NCBI RefSeq assembly: GCF_000202835.1
Contig: NC_015186.1
Location: forward strand, 124,001 to 188,000
Reading direction: 5' to 3'
Origin: Acidiphilium multivorum AIU301
GTDB lineage: Bacteria; Pseudomonadota; Alphaproteobacteria; Acetobacterales; Acetobacteraceae
DNA: 64,000 nt
Of this stretch, positions 11,463 through 20,529 are shown in pieces (position 1 is the stretch's first letter; every line of letters begins with the position of its first letter). The position numbers were made by a program, and so were the translations under genes. The notes under the pieces are model-generated. The model was not told the DNA's origin, made no database searches, and saw only the letters and a program-made list of their open reading frames with translations.

Positions 11463-12152
11463 ATGGGTATTGTCACACGAGTTTGCCGCCGGCGCGACGC
11501 CGCAGATGCGGCGCGGCAACGGCGCGACGCGCTGATCGAGACGGCGGAACGGGTGTTCCTTCGCAAGGGGTATCATGCCGCGACGATGGACGATATTGCC
11601 GCCGAGGCCGGCATGTCGAAGCGAACGCTTTATCAGCTTGTGGACTCCAAGGAAGACCTGTTCACCGCTCTGCTCGAGCGCCGCCGTCGCCCTCTTGATG
11701 TTTCCGGCATTGAGACCGAGGGGCGGCCGGTGGACGACGTATTGAACGATATGCTCCGCTTGTGGGCGCACCACGTGTTGAGCCCGTCGATTATCGCACT
11801 TGCCCGGCTGATCATGGCGGAATACATGCATGGCCGGACGCTCTCCCGCCTGCTGGATCGGGAGGGAGCAAAGCCGTGCCGTGATGCGCTGCGGGATTAT
11901 TTTTCCGCCAGTGCCGCCAGCGGATCCCTCGCCATCGACGATCCCGAAGAGGCGGCACACATGCTTTACGGGATGGCGATCGGTAATATCCACATCGAAA
12001 TGCTTTTGGGCGTCGGAAAGGCCCGTAGCCGTGCCGAAATCGATGCCCGGATTGCCCGTGCTGTCGGCTTGTTCCTCGGTGGGGCCAGGCCAAGCGGGCG
12101 GGTGGGATCAGACGTGCCCGCGCAGGTCCGCGAAACGATGGCGCAGAGTTGA
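11463..12152 (+). CDS. TetR/AcrR-family repressor
   Basis: A 229-residue TetR protein. Helix-turn-helix residues lie at about 33-62 (TMDDIAAEAGMSKRTLYQLV), after the usual ALIETAERVFLRKGYHA helix, with a variable all-helical ligand domain behind. An upstream ATG at 11424 is in frame, but 11463 has the clear GAGGAA ribosome site. It probably represses the divergent RND operon and itself. Its last 45 bp overlap the end of the convergent paaX gene. Confidence 0.85.
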   Translation: MGIVTRVCRRRDAADAARQRRDALIETAERVFLRKGYHAATMDDIAAEAGMSKRTLYQLVDSKEDLFTALLERRRRPLDVSGIETEGRPVDDVLNDMLRLWAHHVLSPSIIALARLIMAEYMHGRTLSRLLDREGAKPCRDALRDYFSASAASGSLAIDDPEEAAHMLYGMAIGNIHIEMLLGVGKARSRAEIDARIARAVGLFLGGARPSGRVGSDVPAQVRETMAQS

Positions 12153-12977
12153 ATCTGCCGTCGGTAGCGCGCCTGTCTCGGTCGCGCCGTTATGGCTCAG
12201 CCAGAGCTCCGATGCATCGAGTAGCGCCTCGTAGAGTTGGGCACAGAGTCGGCGCGCCCCGTCGCCGGCCCACTCTTCCGGTAGGAAAGTAGCCGGCAGA
12301 CGCGGGTCCCGCAGCACAATCCGCCGGTAGTCATGGATCAACAGCAGCCGGGCCAGCAGCGCATCGCGCGGATCGAAAGCCGGGGCGTCGGCCGTAAGCC
12401 CGCCGAAAATGGCAAGAAATCCCTTGTAGTGATCGCACAAGGCATCCAGTCGCCAGGCTCGCGCCGCCAGTCGGCGCAGTGATTCCGGGCCGCCGGTTGC
12501 TCGAAGAACGATGCTCCCAGCTTCGAGCGAGCGTGGCAACGGCCGGTCCGGCGCGAGCAGTATGCCTTGCCATGAGGCAAAGCCGAGTCGGTTGAACCGC
12601 TCGCGTGCAGGTTCCCGGCCCGGTCCTGGCTCGGGGAGGGCGATGATCAGGCTCCGAGCTGCTGTGCCACGAGGCCGACCGTAGATATGTCGCGCGGCGC
12701 GGATGAACTCACCGCGGCGTGACGGGCCGATCCGGTAGTAACTCGAACGGCCACGGCGGCTCGCCACCAGCCAGCCATCAGCGGCAAGCCTGGAGATAGC
12801 GGTACGTATTACACCCGGGCCAATGCCAAGGGACTCGAACAGGTCGAGTATGGTAGCGAGAGCAATGGCGCTGCCGCGTGGTAGCAGAGCATCCCCGAAC
12901 AGCGTTACGATAAGCGATCCGGTATGGGAGGGTTGCTCATGCAATCGGGCCACAAGAGCGGCGACATGATGATTCAT
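12108..12977 (-). CDS. paaX: PaaX-family phenylacetate-type repressor
   Basis: A 289-residue PaaX-like protein: N-terminal winged helix (residues 20-85, LESLGIGPGVIRTAISRLAADGWL-type layout), central domain and a C-terminal dimerisation region. PaaX represses phenylacetyl-CoA catabolism genes and is relieved by phenylacetyl-CoA. No paa gene is in the window; the upstream side is immediately filled with IS debris, so it may be an orphan cut from its operon. The frame stays open well upstream through IS sequence, but homology begins at MNHHVAAL. Confidence 0.8.
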   Translation of the reverse strand: MNHHVAALVARLHEQPSHTGSLIVTLFGDALLPRGSAIALATILDLFESLGIGPGVIRTAISRLAADGWLVASRRGRSSYYRIGPSRRGEFIRAARHIYGRPRGTAARSLIIALPEPGPGREPARERFNRLGFASWQGILLAPDRPLPRSLEAGSIVLRATGGPESLRRLAARAWRLDALCDHYKGFLAIFGGLTADAPAFDPRDALLARLLLIHDYRRIVLRDPRLPATFLPEEWAGDGARRLCAQLYEALLDASELWLSHNGATETGALPTADSTLRHRFADLRGHV

Positions 12978-13059
12978 GGTCGGATAAGACCTTAATCCGC
13001 CCAGCTTCGCCAGTGCTGCGTTAACCGAACCGTGACAATGGCCAAGACGACCTGCTCCC

Positions 13060-13226
13060 CCGATTGTTGCCGACCAAAGGTAGAGTCTTGTTCCTTCATG
13101 ATGGTTGTTTGAGGTGAATGCAACGCGTCTGGGGGCATGCATCCAAATACGTTGGCCGATGATCTCGGCGGGGGCCTTTCCGCCTAGTTTCGAGTACGGC
13201 CTCCGGTATTGTAGCCGTGTTGCCAG
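13060..13226 (-). pseudogene. C-terminal remnant of an IS3-family transposase
   Basis: The minus-strand frame reads RPYSKLGGKAPAEIIGQRIW, then HAPRRVAFTSNNHHEGTRLY. This is the usual tail of IS3-group integrases (RPHSxLGGxTPAE, then HAPxxVA and NHxGxxLYL). The expected stop after LYL is replaced by TGG, so the frame runs on toward paaX. Everything upstream of the tail is missing and is replaced by the neighbouring IS5 gene. Confidence 0.6.
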
Positions 13227-14089
13227 ACAACGAGGAAGAGCCATGCGGTGGCGCTGGTAACGGTGGCTTCGAAATCCTTTGCGAGGCGCCGACATCTGCT
13301 GAGCCAGGCGAAGGTTCTCTCTATCACCCAGCGTCGCGGCAGGAGCACGAACCCGCTGGCGGCGTCCGAGCGCTTGACGATCTGTATGGTCCATTTGCCG
13401 ATTTTGGTGAGGCGTCCCTTGAGTTTGGGACCGGCATAGCCGCCATCGGCAAACACAGGCCGCAACCAGGGATATAGGGATTTGACGGATTTGAGCACGT
13501 CGGGCGCCCCATCCCGGTCCTGTATGCCGGCATGGTGAACGACGGCGCCGACGAGGTGGCCGATTGTATCCGTGATGATGTGGCGCTTGCGCCCCTTGAT
13601 CTTCTTTCCGGCATCGAACCCGCGCGGCCCGCCGGCTTCGGTGGTCTTGACCGACTGACTGTCGATCACACCGGCTGTGGGCGACGGCCCGCGTCCGGCC
13701 ACTTCCCGCGCCTGCATGACCAGGACGTGATTGATACGATCGAGGGTGCCATCGCGACAGAAGCGGTAGAAATAGCCCTGCACGGTGGTGAACGGTGCGA
13801 ATTCCTTCGGGATCTGCCACCTCCGGCGGCATTCCACCTGCTCCGCAGGCGGAACCTTGAGCCGCCTCCGCCACTGGCAGCCGGTCGCCAGCATGTAGAA
13901 AATGGCCTCCATAATCCGCCGCAGCGCCACCGTTCGAGGCCGACCTCGATGCGGCGGCAAGGGCATGAACGGCTTGATCAAGGCCCATTCGGCATCGGTA
14001 AGGTCGCTTGCGTAGCGCAATCCGGCCCGGCAATATCGTTGCCGAGCGATTTCAGTCCGGGTCATCGTCGTCTCCGTCCGTCTTCGCAA
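13184..14089 (-). CDS. IS5-family transposase
   Basis: A 301-residue DDE transposase. The N-terminal part (ASDLTDAEWALIKPFMP, a DUF4096-like domain) is followed by the DDE motifs VIDSQSVKT, FADGGYAG and the final ERTFAWLSRCRRLAKDFE. The last 16 or so residues (VVWQHGYNTGGRTRN) do not look like the normal family tail and run into the IS3 remnant, so the 3' end may be truncated or rebuilt from the neighbour. I could not define terminal inverted repeats. Confidence 0.85.
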   Translation of the reverse strand: MRRRTETTMTRTEIARQRYCRAGLRYASDLTDAEWALIKPFMPLPPHRGRPRTVALRRIMEAIFYMLATGCQWRRRLKVPPAEQVECRRRWQIPKEFAPFTTVQGYFYRFCRDGTLDRINHVLVMQAREVAGRGPSPTAGVIDSQSVKTTEAGGPRGFDAGKKIKGRKRHIITDTIGHLVGAVVHHAGIQDRDGAPDVLKSVKSLYPWLRPVFADGGYAGPKLKGRLTKIGKWTIQIVKRSDAASGFVLLPRRWVIERTFAWLSRCRRLAKDFEATVTSATAWLFLVVWQHGYNTGGRTRN

Positions 14090-14158
14090 ACGAACTGAAC
14101 CACAACCTACTGAAATTGTTCAACTATCTTTTGCGGTCCGGCTCTTATAGGCACTCAA

Positions 14159-15785
14159 CTTAGCGGGATTATTCGCGAGCGCATTTCCTCTGATTTTTCT
14201 CAGGCGGGTTGTGCAACCTGACATCGTGCGGGCGTGATGGCTTACCGGCCGAACCTAGCTGTTTTTGGTGGGCTCTACGATGTGTTGGCGTTGGATGTGG
14301 CAGAGATCGGGGCCGGACGGGGCAAACGCCCCTGGGATCAGCTGACCAGCCTGGGCAGTCTGGCCAGGGCATAGCCGAGGATCGCCTGGTCCGGCATTGA
14401 GCGCGGCAGATGCAGGCGGATCGAGCGTTTCAGGGTTTCGAGGCGGACGGCGAGTTTGATCAGGCGCAGGTGCAGGGTATCGAACTGGATACCACGCCAG
14501 CGCGACCGACGCGGCATCAGGGAGCGCAAACTCCACATCAGCCAGTAGGCGCCGATATGCAGAAACAGGCGCATCTGGTTGGCGCTGGCCCGCGAGCACG
14601 AGGTCCGGTCGGCCGCAAGATGGGTCTTCCACGCCTTGATATGGTTCTCGGCCTGGCCGCGCGCGCAGTAGATCTCTTGATACAGGGTGCGCGGGGAACC
14701 AGCCTTCAGGCTGGTGACGATGAAGCGGGTATCGCCCCCCAGCGGCCAGGCCTCGACGCGGGCGATGATCCGCTCGACGCGGTCCCAGCTTGCTGCGCCA
14801 TCATTGAACTCTTTGAACCGCCGGATTTTCTCTCCCGGAGCCTGTTGCGCGCGCGCCGTGGTGCTGGCCTCCAGCGCGATGACGTGTTTGCGCAGCGTCG
14901 TGGTCGTGCGACGCCGAAGATGTAATCGAGGCGACGCGCTCGACAGAACCGCAGAACTGCCGGCGTGCAGAAGTGCGAATCACCGCGCAGCATGATCGCG
15001 GTACGTGGCCAATGGCCGCGGATGGCGTCGATCAGCCGGCGCAACCATTTGACGATCTGGGCCCCTTTTGGCCGACACGCCGGACGCAGCACCGCGGCGA
15101 GCATCCGGCGGTCGCCGTCGAACACCACAATCGGTTGAGATCCGTATTCGTTGTGGTGTGCGTTGAACAAGCAGAGTTGCTGCGCGCCGTGAGCGGCATC
15201 GAAGGTATCGTCGATATCCAGCACAATCCGGTTGGGTATGGTGCGGAAGCTCGCGCAATAATGCTCGACCATCGCCAGGCCCATGCGCAGCAGCGCGCGA
15301 GGCCCGGGCAAATTCTCGGTGCGTGAAACCGTCGCTTGCGAGCACAGATCGCCCGCCTCGGGCAGACGCTCCATCGCGAGTTTGAACATCGGGTCGTTGC
15401 GCAACCAGTCGGCGTCGTTGCCATCCTCGTAACCGGCCGCGATCATCAACATGCGAAACCGAATGATCTCGTCGAGCCCATGCTGGACGCCCTCCGGCGT
15501 GCGCGGATCATCGATGCAGGCTGCCAACTGCGCGGCAATCCCCAGCCGCTTCTCGACCTCGCGTAATGCCAGCAGACCGCCGTCTGAGGACAGCATCTCG
15601 CCGTCGAAGCGGGCCAGCACCGGTTTGCCGGCGACAGGTGACAGACCGGGGAGGCATGGGGTCGTTTCAACCGTGGCGGGCATCACGTTCCATGCTGATG
15701 AAGATTTGGTCTCGACACCAAATTCTTAGATCAAATCAACGGTTTACGCTATGCCTGCCAACCCTCACGCATAATTCAGGCTAAG
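14159..15785 (-). mobile_element. IS1380-family insertion sequence
   Basis: The ends carry an imperfect inverted repeat. The left end starts CTTAGCGGGATTATTCGCGA and the right end, read inward on the minus strand, starts CTTAGCCTGAATTATGCGTG; about 18 of 24 positions match with one gap. The 1627-bp length fits the family. It holds one transposase gene, which is frameshifted. The right end abuts an IS256 remnant. Confidence 0.65.
14338..15686 (-). pseudogene. IS1380-family transposase, frameshifted
   Basis: Residues 1-260 read normally (CLPGLSPVAGKPVLARFDGE, VLDIDDTFDAAHG, IMLRGDSHFC, DYIFGVA), with Asp-rich DDE motifs. Near 14905-14915 one base is missing relative to the expected GVAPTTTLRKHV reading. 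The frame then shifts, and the rest of the family sequence (NQMRLFLHIGAYWLM through to LARLPRLVS, ending 14338) continues in another frame. The transposase is therefore probably inactive unless ribosomal slippage restores it. Confidence 0.85.
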
Positions 15786-16395
15786 AACCGCGGCGTCGAG
15801 GACATCCTGCTGGCTGTGGTCGATGGCCTGAAGGGGGGCCCGGAGGCGATCACTGCCGTCTTTCCCGAGACGATCGTGCAGACCTGCATCGTCCATCTGC
15901 TCCGGAATTCCATGGATTTCGTGTCCTACAAGGACCACAAGGCGGTCGCCACCGCGCTCAAGGACATCTACCGGACCGGGCCGTTGATGCCCAAGCCGCC
16001 GAGGCAGCTCTCGCCGCCTTCGACGCCGGTTCATGGGGGGCAGAAATATCCTGACATCGGCCAGAGCTGGCGCCGAGTGTGGCAGGAAGTCATCCCGTTC
16101 TTTTCCTTCCCCGGCGAGGTCCGTCGGATCATTTATGCAACGAATGCCATAGAGGCCCTGAATTCCAAGCTGCGGCGGGCCATCCCCGCGCGCGGCCATT
16201 TCCCAGCGATGAGGCCGCGGCCAAGCTGCTCTATCTGATCCTGAACCGATCCGAAAAAGGAGTCGGTGATGCCACCTCGAGAATGGCCTATGGCAAAGGT
16301 TCAGTTCGCCGTCATCTTCGGCAATCGCTTCGTAAGGGCCCCGCCGGCCTGATGTTCAACCGCCACCCATACAGAGAATTCCTGACACCGCCGGC
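15781..16395 (+). pseudogene. IS256-family transposase remnant
   Basis: The plus strand carries the C-terminal half of an IS256 (MULE-type) transposase: KNRGVEDILLAVVDGLKG, VQTCIVHLLRNSMDFVS, QSWRRVWQEVIPFF, then IIYATNAIEALNSKLRRA and a final FAVIFGNRFVRAPPA. The frame changes after YRTGP, again near WGQKYP, and twice after GHFPS, so it is decayed. The N-terminal half is absent. AGAATTCCTGACA just past the stop resembles the terminal repeat of such elements and marks its end near 16390. Confidence 0.85.
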
Positions 16396-16872
16396 TTCAT
16401 CGATGAAGATTAACCGCTCGGGTTCGAGATCGACCTGGTCCTCAAACCACTCACGGCGCCGCTTCAGGACGTCCGGACGGTCCTGCTCCACCGCATGGCC
16501 AATCTTTTTGTTCAGCGTGATCCGGTGTCCGCCGAAGAACCGCCAGATCGTCGAAATGCCAAACCGCTCCGAACGTTCCTTCATCAGCCGCTCCTGCACC
16601 TCGACAAGTGTCAAGTCCGGCGTCGTCTCGACCAGGTCAAGGACAACCACCCGCGTGGCGCTCGATCCGTTCCGAGCGGCGGTCGCCGCCCACCTTCATT
16701 GGTGCCGGCGAACCCCTCTCCCGGCTCAGTTGCACCCAGCGTATCGCCGCCGCAATCCCAACCCCGAGGCGTTCAGCCGCCAGACAGTGCGACATGCCGC
16801 CATCAACCGCCGCTACGACGCGTACACAAATCCAGCGAAATTACCTTCACCCTATGCATGCCAGCCTCCTTC
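16396..16872 (-). pseudogene. IS630-family transposase remnant A
   Basis: Minus-strand pieces in two frames give VISLDLCVRVVAAVDGGMS, ERLGVGIAAAIRWVQLSRER, then a continuing segment DLVETTPDLTLVEVQERLMK, FGISTIWRFF and RPDVLKRRREWFEDQ, ending at LIFIDEAG. This is the helix-turn-helix and start of the DDE domain of IS630; it is cut off at FIDE by the IS256 remnant. The start is preceded by GAAGGAGGCTGGCATG, which is repeated at remnant B. Confidence 0.8.
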
Positions 16873-16974
16873 GCCTGCAAACATCGTGAATCACCTCTCA
16901 CCCGATACGGGAATCCCCACGCGATTTTTCGGCTCAGAAGCTGCTCTAAAATAGATCCCGGATCACTCAGAAGG

Positions 16975-17047
16975 AGCCGATCAGCAGCCAGAATCCGCAC
17001 GCGCAAATCAATCGAGAGAGGGTATCCCATCCATGCCAGCCTCCTTC
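16975..17047 (-). pseudogene. IS630-family transposase remnant B (N-terminus only)
   Basis: MGYPLSIDLRVRILAA, the typical first 16 residues of IS630 transposases, is read from the ATG at 17030 and then diverges. It carries the same GAAGGAGGCTGGCATG ribosome-site segment as remnant A, so it is the start of a second related element rather than part of the first. Confidence 0.6.
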
Positions 17048-17239
17048 ACCAGCACGGATTCTGACCCAGAATTCCACGCCAGCGGGAATTCCCCCCATCA
17101 ATTCAATACGGTCGAAAACGCTCTAGGGCATGTGGGGATTTAGGATTCCCATTTGGGGGTGGCTGTGATTATGGGATGGCCCGCCCCTCTCGTGGCGATC
17201 TGGTAGGATCGCCGCTGGTTTGGAGAGAGGAGCAGACCG

Positions 17240-18280
17240 ATGGATATCATGATTCTCGGCATCGATCTTGGGAAGAACTCTTGCAGCGTGGTGGGCATGG
17301 ACGCCGCCGGCCGGGTTGTTTTGAGGCGGAGACTTCGGCGGGGAACGTTGGAAAGTTTCGTTGGCGAGCTTGGGTCGTGCATTGTGGCAATGGAAGCATG
17401 TTGCGGCGCTCATCACCTCGGGCGGATTTTCGCCGCGCGGGGCCACGAGGTGCGGCTGATGTCGCCGGAATATGTCCGTCCGTACGTGAAGGCGCAGAAG
17501 AACGATGATCTCGACGCGGAGGCGATCGCAGAGGCTGCGACGCGGCCAACGATGCGTTTCGTGCCTGTGAAGAGCCAGGACCAATCTGATCTCCAGGCTT
17601 TGCACCGAGCCCGGGAGCGCCTCGTCTCGGAACGGACGGCGCTGATCAATCACTTGCGGGCGTTGCTGCTGGAGCGAGGGATCGTCGTTCCGCAAGGCCG
17701 GAGGAAACTGGAAGCCGAGCTTGAGACATTGGCCGAAGATGGCGGTTTTGCCGCGTTGAGCCCGCGCATCCGGACGTTGATCGAAGATCTTCGGGCGGAA
17801 TGGCGTTCACTCGACCAGAGGATCACCGGCTTCGACGCCGAGTTCGTTCAGTTGGCTCGTGACGACGTGGCTGTGCGACGTTTGACCAAAATCCCAGGAA
17901 TTGGAACGATAAACGCTACGGCGCTGGCGGCGGCGGTCGGCGAGGCGCATGCATTCAAACGTGGGCGGGACATGGCGGCGTGGCTGGGGCTCGTTCCACG
18001 GCAAATGACAACGGGTGGAAAACCGCGCCTGCTCGGCATCAGCAAACGCGGCAATCGTTATTTGCGGAAGAACTTGATCCATGGCGCACGAGCGGCGCTG
18101 CCTTATCTTGTCGAACGCGATACGCCGTTGGGCCGCTGGGCGCGGGGATTGCTCGATCGAGCGCATAAGAACGTGGTCGTAGTCGCGCTGGCCGCGAAGC
18201 TGGCTCGGATTGCATGGGCCGTTTTGGCGCACGGTTGCGATTACGACGCCCAATTCGAAGCGGCGGCTGCGGCCGCATGA
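17240..18280 (+). CDS. IS110/IS1111-group transposase
   Basis: A 346-residue DEDD recombinase. The N-terminal RuvC-like domain shows GIDLGKNSC (Asp), a Glu in IVAMEACCGAH and Asp residues in KNDDLDAEAIAEA. A coiled-coil linker follows, then the C-terminal Tnp domain (LTKIPGIGTINATALAAAVG; GLVPRQMTTGGKPRLLGISK). It works with a guide (bridge) RNA made from the element's own non-coding end. The GLVPRQ..GGK.RLLGISKRG signature is IS1111-like. Position 256 or so has Thr-Thr where many relatives have a Ser before GGK. The reading frame is undamaged. Confidence 0.92.
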   Translation: MDIMILGIDLGKNSCSVVGMDAAGRVVLRRRLRRGTLESFVGELGSCIVAMEACCGAHHLGRIFAARGHEVRLMSPEYVRPYVKAQKNDDLDAEAIAEAATRPTMRFVPVKSQDQSDLQALHRARERLVSERTALINHLRALLLERGIVVPQGRRKLEAELETLAEDGGFAALSPRIRTLIEDLRAEWRSLDQRITGFDAEFVQLARDDVAVRRLTKIPGIGTINATALAAAVGEAHAFKRGRDMAAWLGLVPRQMTTGGKPRLLGISKRGNRYLRKNLIHGARAALPYLVERDTPLGRWARGLLDRAHKNVVVVALAAKLARIAWAVLAHGCDYDAQFEAAAAAA

Positions 18281-18412
18281 CGGAATCGCCCGAACAGCGC
18301 TCACAGTTGGGCGCGAAAGGGCAGTCGATGTCTGCGTGAGGTGAAAGGAAGATGGCCTGACAGTCGAACGGCGGCTTGAAAACCTGACGCAGTGAACGGC
18401 CTCCGAGGCCGG
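18281..18412 (+). ncRNA. Candidate bridge RNA region of the IS110 element
   Basis: The 3' non-coding end folds on paper into three elements: CGCCC/GGGCG (18287-18291 with 18309-18313, 17-nt loop); a ten-position stem CTGCGTGAGG/CCTGACGCAG with one mismatch (18332-18341 with 18383-18392) closing a 41-nt loop; and CGGCC/GGCCG (18397-18411) beside the right boundary. CAGTCGA occurs twice (18322, 18361). In the IS1111 group the bridge RNA is encoded 3' of the transposase, which fits. Guide loops have not been assigned. Confidence 0.5.
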
Positions 18413-18553
18413 TGTGATTATGAGGATCAGGCCGCGCGGATCTCCATCTTGGCCGGGTTCGAAGCCCGAGACCGGATACGTTGAAGCAGACTGATTAGAG
18501 CCAGATGAAAATCACCCCTTGCGGACGGGGCGGGCCATACGTTCACGCTGTGA

Positions 18554-19305
18554 ATGGAACGATTTGTACTGACGGACGCCCAATGGGCGAGGATAGAACC
18601 GCATTGTCTTGGCAAGGCGAGTGACCCCGGCCGCTGCGGCCGGGACAATCGGCTGTTTCTGGAAGCGGTGCTTTGGATTGTCCGTACTGGCAGTCCGTGG
18701 CGTGATCTGCCTTCGATGTTTGGCAACTGGAGCACGGCCTACCGCCGGTTCAACGACTGGCGCCGCGCTGATGTTTTCAAACGGATTTTCGACGCGGTAT
18801 CTGATGAACCCGACATGGAATACGCCATGGTCGACGCCACGATCGTCAAGGTCCACCGTCACGGCCAGGGCGCAAAAGGGGGACTCAAAGCCAGGCCATA
18901 GGCCGTTCCAAAGGTGGCATGACAACCAAAATTCTGGCGCTGACGGATGCCTTGGGCAACCTTGTGCGCTTTCGTCTCATGCCGGGCAATCGCTATGACA
19001 GCATCGAGGTCCCGCCACTGATCGACAACGTCGAATTCGGTGGATTGATCGCAGACAAGGCATTCGACAGCAACGCTCTGGTCGCAGAACTCAACGAAAG
19101 AGGCGCCAGGATCGTCATTTCCCAGCACCCGGCCCGGGCACTGAAGCTGAAAATCGACCACGAAACCTACAAATGGCGTCATCTGATCGAGAATTTCTTC
19201 TGCAAGCTCAAGGAGTTCAAACGCATCGCCCTGCGCGCCTGCAAAACAGACCAGAGCTTCCAGCCAATGATCCACCTCGCCGCAGCCGTCATCAACTCAC
19301 GATGA
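18554..19305 (+). CDS. IS5-family (IS427-group) transposase, two frames joined by slippage
   Basis: Frame one (18554-18901) encodes the N-terminal part (MERFVLTDAQWARIEPH, DNRLFLEAVLWIVRTG, MVDATIVKVHRHGQGAKGG). Frame two continues with TQSQAIGRSKGGMTTKILAL, ADKAFDSNALVAEL and the final YKWRHLIENFFCKLKEFKR to 19305. The overlap contains AAAAGGGGG at 18874-18882, a plausible -1 slippery run, as known for this group. The right end reads ACCCCCACAAACCCT, a usual terminal repeat, but I see no partner on the left side, so the left end may be lost. Confidence 0.8.
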
Positions 19306-19323
19306 ACCCCCACAAACCCTAAA

Positions 19324-20529
19324 TTAATGGTTACATGTCGTTATGCAAAATCGTAGAATGCGCTCGCAGGCCTCTTCCAGAAGGGCATCGGATGCAGCCG
19401 TCGAAAGCCGGATATGACCTGGCATTGCAAACGCGGAGCCCGGAACCGTAGCGACCAAAGCCTCATCTAGTAAGGCATTCGCCACATCCTCATCATTGCC
19501 AAGTATTCGGCCGCTCGGGGTCCGGCAACCCAATAGACTGGTGATCGACGGGAAGGCGTAGAAAGCTCCCTCTGGGCGGGAACAGGTAAGGCCAGGCGCA
19601 CCGGCCAGCGCACCTAGAACAAGATCGCGGCGTCGACGATAAATCGTACGTCGTTCCTCGAGAAGATCCTGCGGGCCGTCTAGCGCCGCAACAGCAGCCG
19701 CCTGGCTAATGGTCGAAACACCCGCAGTGGCAGTCCCCTGAACCAGCGTCATTGCCGCTAGCCAGTCACGCGGACCGGTACAGAAGCCAAGGCGCCAGCC
19801 GGTCATCGCATAGGATTTCGATACGCCGGACATAGTCAGCACGCGCCCAGCGAGATCTGGAGCAGCGGCCGCCAATGTCAGGTACGCGCCTTCGAAAATG
19901 AGGTGCTCGTAAATATCATCCGAAATTGTCAGTACATGAGGATGCCGACGAAGCACATCGGCGATGCCGATAAGCATTGCCGCATCGGCAATCGCGCCGG
20001 ACGGATTGTTTGGATAGTTGAGAACAAGGAGCTTCGTCCTTGGCCCGATAGCTGCCGCGAGGGTGGCAGCATCCACGCGGAATCCTGCTTCGGCGGGGCA
20101 ATCGATGAACACCGGGATACCACCGGCGAATTCAACCACCTGGATGTAGCCTGCCCAGCAAGGCGCGGGAATAAGCACTTCATCGCCAGGATCGATGACC
20201 GACATCACGGCGTCAAATATCGCCTGCTTGCCGCCATTTGTGACAAGAACGTCAGCTGGTGTTGCCGGCAAACCCTGATCGCGTTCGAATTTCCGTGCTG
20301 CGGCGCAGCGCAGCGCATCGGTTCCAGCGATAGGGGGGTAGCGTGTCTGCCCGCCGAGTGCGGCACGGTGTGCGGCATCAACGACATGCGGTGGGGTTGG
20401 AAGGTCGGGCTCGCCGATCGATAGCGAAATCACATCATGGCCAGCGGCACGAAGAGCGCGAGCCCGGGCAGCCATAGCGAAAGTAGCCGCCGGCCTTGTT
20501 CGGCCGACGCAGGCGGAAAATTGGATCAT
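19324..20529 (-). CDS. Class I/II aminotransferase (aspartate aminotransferase-like)
   Basis: A 401-residue PLP enzyme of fold type I. Motifs are the SIGEPDLPTP start, NGGKQAIFD, NYPNNPSGA, SDDIYEHLIF, the Schiff-base lysine in MSGVSKSYAMTGWRLG and HIRLSTAASDALLEEA near the end. It probably transaminates aspartate or a related amino acid with 2-oxoglutarate. It lies 31 bp after the GT41 gene on the same strand. An IS5-type element ends a few bases beyond its stop, so the last residues (ITTCNH) could have been altered by the insertion. Confidence 0.85.
   Translation of the reverse strand: MIQFSACVGRTRPAATFAMAARARALRAAGHDVISLSIGEPDLPTPPHVVDAAHRAALGGQTRYPPIAGTDALRCAAARKFERDQGLPATPADVLVTNGGKQAIFDAVMSVIDPGDEVLIPAPCWAGYIQVVEFAGGIPVFIDCPAEAGFRVDAATLAAAIGPRTKLLVLNYPNNPSGAIADAAMLIGIADVLRRHPHVLTISDDIYEHLIFEGAYLTLAAAAPDLAGRVLTMSGVSKSYAMTGWRLGFCTGPRDWLAAMTLVQGTATAGVSTISQAAAVAALDGPQDLLEERRTIYRRRRDLVLGALAGAPGLTCSRPEGAFYAFPSITSLLGCRTPSGRILGNDEDVANALLDEALVATVPGSAFAMPGHIRLSTAASDALLEEACERILRFCITTCNH

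What the first reader, a model, noticed from the sequence alone, without database searches (positions are those of the whole stretch)
17164..18422. Intact IS110/IS1111 element with a structured 3' region that looks like a bridge RNA
The transposase is undamaged and of the IS1111 type. The non-coding 3' end (18281-18412) can form three stem-loops, one a ten-position stem with a single mismatch closing a 41-nt loop. A 10-bp direct repeat (TGTGATTATG) marks probable cores at both ends. Bridge RNAs in this group are expected exactly there. Seen: repeats, stems, ORF. Known: IS110 elements use bridge RNA. Inferred: that this RNA is functional and which loops guide target and donor.
Basis: partly seen in the sequence, partly recalled or inferred. 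Interest (0 to 1): 0.7.

Follow-up and report, generated by a model that had tools for sequence, protein, structure and literature searches.

The report
IS1111 element with matched guide RNA
This is an intact bacterial jumping gene, present in many copies, that very likely carries a small guide RNA choosing where it inserts; the kind is already known, but its true ends and its guide-to-target match could be worked out here.

Summary
The bridge-RNA idea is well supported; the anatomy in the finding is partly wrong. The window holds an intact IS1111-group element. Twelve copies and uninterrupted sites put the inserted DNA at 17171-18543 (1373 bp), not 17164-18422. TGTGATTATG is not a pair of end cores: the left copy is target TGTGATT plus the element's first three bases; the right copy (18413-18422) lies inside the element and is the left target guide of the predicted RNA. 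Sub-terminal inverted repeats match 12 of 12 (17176-17187, 18527-18538). Across 73 elements the guide follows the insertion site: 319 of 365 left-guide bases match the own flank against 130.7 expected, and 299 of 365 right-guide positions against 170.3 (0 of 5000 shuffles reach either). Ten of ten plasmid elements kept out of the alignment also match on the left. Guide order is the one published for IS1111 seekRNAs. A named relative, ISPmar4, has the same repeats. New member of a known kind. Not shown: that the RNA is made or that transposition occurs now.

The parts
17171..18543 (+). inserted element, 1373 bp (counted with the right-hand TT core)
   Evidence: 12 copies in the own genome; uninterrupted sites
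17164..17170 (+). left half of the target with the core, TGTGATT (host DNA; core TT at 17169-17170)
   Evidence: present once in uninterrupted sites L179, L035, L037; TGTGATT at 11 of 12 copies, TGTAATT at 1
17171..17175 (+). left end of the element, ATGGG (right donor side of the circle junction)
   Evidence: conserved as ATGG with small variants in relatives
17176..17187 (+). left sub-terminal inverted repeat ATGGCCCGCCCC
   Evidence: 12 of 12 with 18527-18538; perfect 12 of 12 pairs in 64 of 72 kept relatives
17240..18280 (+). IS110-family DEDD transposase/recombinase, 346 aa, intact; Thr258 at the place of the IS621 catalytic serine
18339..18522 (+). stretch matched by the covariance model of the predicted bridge RNA (RNA proper probably about 18350-18500; its ends are not known)
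   Evidence: the window is one of the sequences the model was built from
18361..18365 (+). 5' arm of the closing stem CAGUC, pairs with 18489-18493
   Evidence: helix 1: 96.8% paired, 3 of 5 pairs with changes on both sides
18371..18378 (+). 5' arm of the target-loop stem GCGGCUUG, pairs with 18428-18435
   Evidence: helix 2: 95.6% paired, 7 of 8 pairs with changes on both sides
18392..18396 (+). right target guide GUGAA, complementary to top-strand TTCAC (core and right target)
18397..18411 (+). hairpin between the two target guides (CGGCC 18397-18401 with GGCCG 18407-18411)
   Evidence: helix 3: 99.7% paired
18428..18435 (+). 3' arm of the target-loop stem CAGGCCGC
18443..18447 (+). probable right donor guide UCCAU, complementary to ATGGG with one G-U pair
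   Evidence: position and complementarity only; nearly invariant, so not tested by covariation
18451..18473 (+). donor-side hairpin, variable in length
   Evidence: helices 4 and 5; inner four pairs only 69.0% paired
18476..18482 (+). left donor guide with core, AUACGUU, identical to 18537-18543 (ATACGTT)
   Evidence: one paired change in L096
18489..18493 (+). 3' arm of the closing stem GACUG
18519..18524 (+). TTGCGG, possible -35 box of a junction promoter (18 bases before TATGGG in the circle); weak
   Evidence: junction printed; TTGC well conserved; activity not tested
18527..18538 (+). right sub-terminal inverted repeat GGGGCGGGCCAT
18539..18543 (+). right end ACG plus core TT
   Evidence: ACGTT in 70 of 72 kept relatives
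18544..18546 (+). right target CAC (host DNA)
   Evidence: uninterrupted site L179

Best explanation
A complete IS1111-group insertion sequence that moves by RNA-guided recombination. Shown by sequence comparison: its ends, its sub-terminal inverted repeats, uninterrupted targets, and a conserved, covarying 3' RNA region whose two target guides change with the insertion site. Inferred from the family: the element is excised as a circle joining ACG-TT-ATGGG; RNA from the 3' region binds the recombinase; UGUGAUU pairs with the target's bottom strand and GUGAA with its top strand; AUACGUU and UCCAU read the donor junction; strands are exchanged at the shared TT core, giving TGTGATT-ATGGG...ACG-TT-CAC.
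For: Ends and uninterrupted sites. Left guide 319 of 365 against 130.7 (sd 10.1), right guide 299 of 365 against 170.3 (sd 9.0), 0 of 5000 shuffles for each; one row per distinct left guide (n=34) 142 of 170 against 52.8 and 144 of 170 against 83.9; left guide at chance beyond five bases. Ten of ten plasmid elements outside the alignment match 5 of 5 on the left (L183 is nearly the window element itself, so nine are further tests). Fold: 92.7% of 1512 cells paired against 81.1% shuffled, 184 both-side changes against 54.7. Guide order and position as published for IS1111. All 12 copies have an uninterrupted ORF of 346 codons.
Against: 13 of 73 elements match at 3 or fewer of 5 left-guide bases; 8 of these are T-run targets, where the right guide is A-rich. 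The right guide allowed a shift of one and is loose: among the 12 own copies the first right base is C in 11 of 12, but the further right bases vary. L052 shows no guide in the expected string, though the model finds its RNA. Donor guides hardly vary, so donor reading rests on position and one paired change. No RNA or activity data. Shuffling ignores kinship.
Confidence: 0.92

Rival explanations
1. The element is: ends at 17164 and 18422, TGTGATTATG as terminal cores, RNA within 18281-18412.
For: The 10-bp repeat is exact.
Confidence: 0.02
2. The 3' region is structured for another reason (for example mRNA 3'-end structure), and the guide-flank match reflects shared ancestry of sites or chance.
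For: No expression data; relatives are kin, and some share flanks.
Against: The match survives with one row per distinct left guide (n=34) and without T-run targets (n=15; 64 of 75 against 26.1), stops sharply at five bases, and holds in plasmid elements outside the alignment.
Confidence: 0.04
3. Guided insertion happened in the past, but most present copies spread as passengers of other insertion sequences, not by their own transposition.
For: 8 of 12 copies lie inside two other IS types, 2 in an IS5-family and 6 in an IS1634-like element.
Against: The other 4 copies are at sites that share only the target; the second host IS is occupied at the same spot in copies with differing flanks; 10 of 12 ORFs are identical and the other two intact. 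These do not exclude passenger spread for part of the 8.
Confidence: 0.25

Closest known systems
ISPmar4 of Paracoccus marcusii plasmid pMARC3 (PMC3832669, three passages seen)
   Same: IS1111 group, 1343 bp, 12-bp inverted repeats ATGGc/tCCGCCCC; a P. marcusii plasmid record (NC_021240.1) holds a 64.4% identical transposase. That this record is pMARC3 is my inference.
   Different: The passages say nothing of an RNA or a guide; the paper calls the repeats terminal; I did not fetch that record.
ISEc11, ISPa11, ISKpn4, ISPst6 with seekRNA (Siddiquee et al. 2024, PMC11187229; abstract and sections 6, 8, 9, 13 seen)
   Same: Downstream non-coding region, sub-terminal inverted repeats, top-strand match 5' of bottom-strand match.
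   Different: Their RNAs were purified and tested; target and sequence differ; no sequence comparison with them was made here.
IS621 bridge RNA system (PMC11208160 and PMC11208158, passages seen)
   Same: Related recombinase; two guides per loop; a dinucleotide core.
   Different: IS621 RNA lies in the left end, with the reverse guide order, CT core and Ser241; here right end, TT core, Thr258.
Element in Acidiphilium cryptum JF-5 plasmid pACRY01 (L183)
   Same: 99.6% identical over the full element; same left guide.
   Different: Another insertion site, TGTGATT then CCTCGCC.

Membership tests
IS110 family, IS1111 group | DEDD N-terminal and Transposase_20 C-terminal domains | tested here: met
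   PF01548 74 bits and PF02371 76.6 bits, NF033542 327 bits against a cut-off of 140
IS110 family, IS1111 group | Sub-terminal inverted repeats of 7-17 bp | tested here: met
   12 of 12; range from PMC11208160
IS110 family, IS1111 group | Longer non-coding region downstream of the transposase gene | tested here: met
   69 bases before (17171-17239) and 263 after (18281-18543) the ORF, from the ends
IS110 family, IS1111 group | GL-P----S(t)G motif | tested here: met
   GLVPRQMTTG at 250-259
IS110 family, IS1111 group | Circular intermediate with joined ends | not testable with these tools
   needs PCR or sequencing of the junction
bridge RNA / seekRNA | Left and right target guides that match the element's own target | tested here: met
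bridge RNA / seekRNA | Donor guides that match the element's ends | tested here: inconclusive
   AUACGUU equals the right end; UCCAU fits the left end; nearly invariant, one paired change in L096
bridge RNA / seekRNA | Conserved secondary structure | tested here: met
bridge RNA / seekRNA | RNA made, bound by the recombinase and needed for transposition | not testable with these tools
   needs an experiment

The most novel reading that the evidence does not exclude
This alphaproteobacterial IS1111 clade is a naturally reprogrammed bridge-RNA set: related recombinases with an almost constant donor loop and a TT core carry at least 34 different five-base left target guides, with threonine in place of serine as the likely strand-attacking residue.
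Probability: 0.6. Interest if true: 0.5.

Novelty: new member of a known kind. Interest (0 to 1): 0.35.

Why it matters
It gives a multi-copy element with exact ends, uninterrupted sites and readable target guides, plus a set of relatives whose natural guide-target pairs show which bases are read: five left bases plus TT, and a looser right side. That is a ready test set for IS1111-type RNA-guided recombination in a clade other than the elements whose RNAs were purified in the study I read.

Tried and rejected

Rfam has no match in the whole window at gathering scores and none up to E 1 for 18270-18560; this says only that the family is not in that library.

Terminator targeting: many relatives insert in T-runs. 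Of 34 distinct sites with a T-run of 5 or more, 11 have an upstream hairpin among the strongest tenth of random flank positions; of 32 others, 4 do. By eye about six look like true terminators, so I do not claim terminator targeting.

Apparent swapped ends in L014, L015 and L052 arose because those loci are held on the other strand; turned round, the ends are ordinary.

The AUG after the left guide, which lengthens the repeat to 10 bp, is a conserved stretch that did not change with the left end in the rows I compared by eye, so no handshake role is claimed. The right guide is followed by UG or CG in 65 of 65 rows, which could pair with the donor's CG; an idea only.

Rows dropped: of 80 relatives (the tool kept the best 80 of 179), L084, L122 and L146 had no repeat pair by script, L098, L100, L111 and L147 were mis-paired, and L079 was merged with the window as an identical RNA; 72 relatives plus the window make the 73. 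One search counted 63 distinct rows of 65. For some searches I took 10 of the 65 hit ids then held, chosen by hand. In one search the model was run on 25 sources: 23 had a match, L111 and L017 had none.

Full report
What is there. The window holds an intact IS110-family transposase gene at 17240-18280 (346 aa; PF01548, PF02371, NF033542). Its C-terminal part aligns with the solved IS621 and ISCro4 transposases.

Ends. The own genome (G000, 4,214,744 bases in 9 contigs) holds 12 full copies, fragments, and two copies of a 69% relative. All 12 begin TGT(G/A)ATTATGGG-ATGGCCCGCCCC and end GGGGCGGGCCAT-ACGTT. Uninterrupted sites show what belongs to the host. L035, a host IS copy without the element, reads CTCGGTC-TGTGATT-CCCTGCC, and L037 also carries TGTGATT (printed there on the other strand). 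L179, from another genome of the genus, is the uninterrupted form of the window's own site: GGTGGC-TGTGATT-CACGC. L159, the homologous gene at the site of a third copy, reads TGTGATC, one base different. So the insertion adds 1373 bp (17171-18543) between TGTGATT and CAC, with TT at both junctions.

The repeat. TGTGATTATG at the left is target TGTGATT plus the element's ATG. At 18413-18422 it lies inside the 3' RNA region.

Relatives. A scan of one genome per species found 179 relatives, of which the best 80 were kept. A script paired the repeats in 77, of which 4 were mis-paired and dropped. Ends are conserved (ACGTT at the right in 70 of 72 kept) while flanks differ. Most of those listed carry an internal copy of their own left flank plus TTAT about 107-121 nt before the right repeat; several show none at the script's threshold.

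Guide test (rows listed, RNA alignment A1, statistics). Over 73 elements the five RNA bases before the core match the own left flank in 319 of 365 positions against 130.7 (sd 10.1) with flanks shuffled; 45 of 73 match 5 of 5 and 60 of 73 at least 4. Bases -8 to -6 match at chance. The right guide, allowing a shift of one, matches in 299 of 365 against 170.3 (sd 9.0). No shuffle of 5000 reached either. One row per distinct left guide (n=34): 142 of 170 against 52.8, and 144 of 170 against 83.9. T-run targets removed as well (n=15): 64 of 75 against 26.1, and 60 of 75 against 31.0. Shuffling ignores kinship, which is why the collapsed sets matter. Against: 13 of 73 match at 3 or fewer left bases, 8 of them with right flanks starting TT.

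Elements outside the alignment. Ten plasmid loci (L182-L191), 10 of 65 hit ids chosen by hand, all match 5 of 5 on the left (L186 in a register shifted by one). L183 (A. cryptum) is nearly the window element, so nine are further tests. Their right guides match less well; in L183 only the first right base agrees. L014 and L015 match at GAATT; L052 showed no expected string.

Structure. On A1 the proposed fold pairs in 92.7% of 1512 cells against 81.1% shuffled, with 184 both-side changes against 54.7; versions slid by 1-3 columns pair in 29-34%. The target-loop stem (7 of 8 pairs change on both sides) and the closing CAGUC/GACUG stem (3 of 5) are best supported; the inner donor hairpin pairs in only 69.0%. 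The structure was drawn from the window sequence, so the slid control flatters it. The covariance model built from it scores the window at 180.4 bits and finds all ten plasmid loci. It finds 16 places in the own genome, and a match in 3 of 142 genomes drawn from the class, the own one included, with stricter filters.

Mechanism. Siddiquee et al. (PMC11187229; abstract and sections 6, 8, 9, 13 seen) report that IS1111 RNAs come from downstream of the transposase gene, co-purify with the transposase, and carry the top-strand match 5' of the bottom-strand match. Here GUGAA (18392-18396) precedes UGUGAUU (18413-18419), as expected. Durrant et al. (PMC11208160, passages) report donor-binding bases in a multiloop in many IS1111 RNAs; here AUACGUU and UCCAU lie in the multiloop closed by CAGUC/GACUG. 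Donor guides hardly vary; one paired change (L096: ATACATT in the RNA, ACATT at the end) agrees. Circle and strand exchange are inferred from the family.

Targets. Of 12 copies, 2 lie in an IS5-family element (NF033580), 6 at one spot in an IS1634-like element (79.7 bits for a 200-aa stretch, under the model's whole-protein cut-off of 100), 4 elsewhere. TGTGATT stands on the left in 11 of 12 and the first right base is C in 11 of 12. The left side is read strictly, the right loosely. The full target TGTGATTCAC occurs once uninterrupted in the own genome. All 12 ORFs are uninterrupted: 10 identical, two at 1032 of 1041 bases.

Catalytic residue. Thr258 aligns with the IS621 serine (role from passages of PMC11208158). 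The motif has Thr in 79 of 80 relatives and Pro in one, by a pattern search. Siddiquee et al. already note TG at this place.

Novelty. A new member of a known kind. ISPmar4 (PMC3832669, three passages) is a named IS1111 element with the same 12-bp repeats. In four literature searches I saw no listing on this element or its guide; ISfinder was not searchable. The host is probably Acidiphilium multivorum: the nearest named hit is A. cryptum JF-5 at 99.6%; the species is recalled from replicon sizes.

Noticed in passing
17124-19321: The element sits inside an IS5-family insertion sequence: TAGGGCATGTGGGG at 17124-17137 and CCCCACAAACCCTA at 19308-19321 fit as its ends in 12 of 14 positions by eye (a script asking for 20 bases with at most 5 mismatches found none). 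Its transposase is split in two ORFs, 18554-18901 and 18919-19305.
   Followed up: partly
G000:C6:1504199, 2248909, 1134025, 64687, 52069 and C1:149755: Six of the 12 copies sit at one spot just upstream of the transposase start of an IS1634-like element.
   Followed up: partly
L088, L089, L136, L143, L150, L156: In these relatives the insertion site looks by eye like an intrinsic terminator, at the start of its T-run.
   Followed up: partly
18350-18355 and 18444-18450: AGAUGG and CCAUCUU are complementary and nearly invariant; they could pair with each other and hide the right donor guide. Invariance means covariation cannot test it.
   Followed up: no
L183:277-468: The neighbouring IS110-family element on A. 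cryptum plasmid pACRY01 gives a weaker match (47.6 bits) to the RNA model, so a more distant relative may carry a similar RNA.
   Followed up: no
12100-19400: The surroundings look like an island of whole and broken insertion-sequence ORFs; apart from the two IS5-family ORFs their families were not tested.
   Followed up: no
L079: A metagenome-assembled Acidocella contig encodes a 100% identical transposase and an identical 3' region, which suggests recent transfer or a mixed assembly.
   Followed up: no
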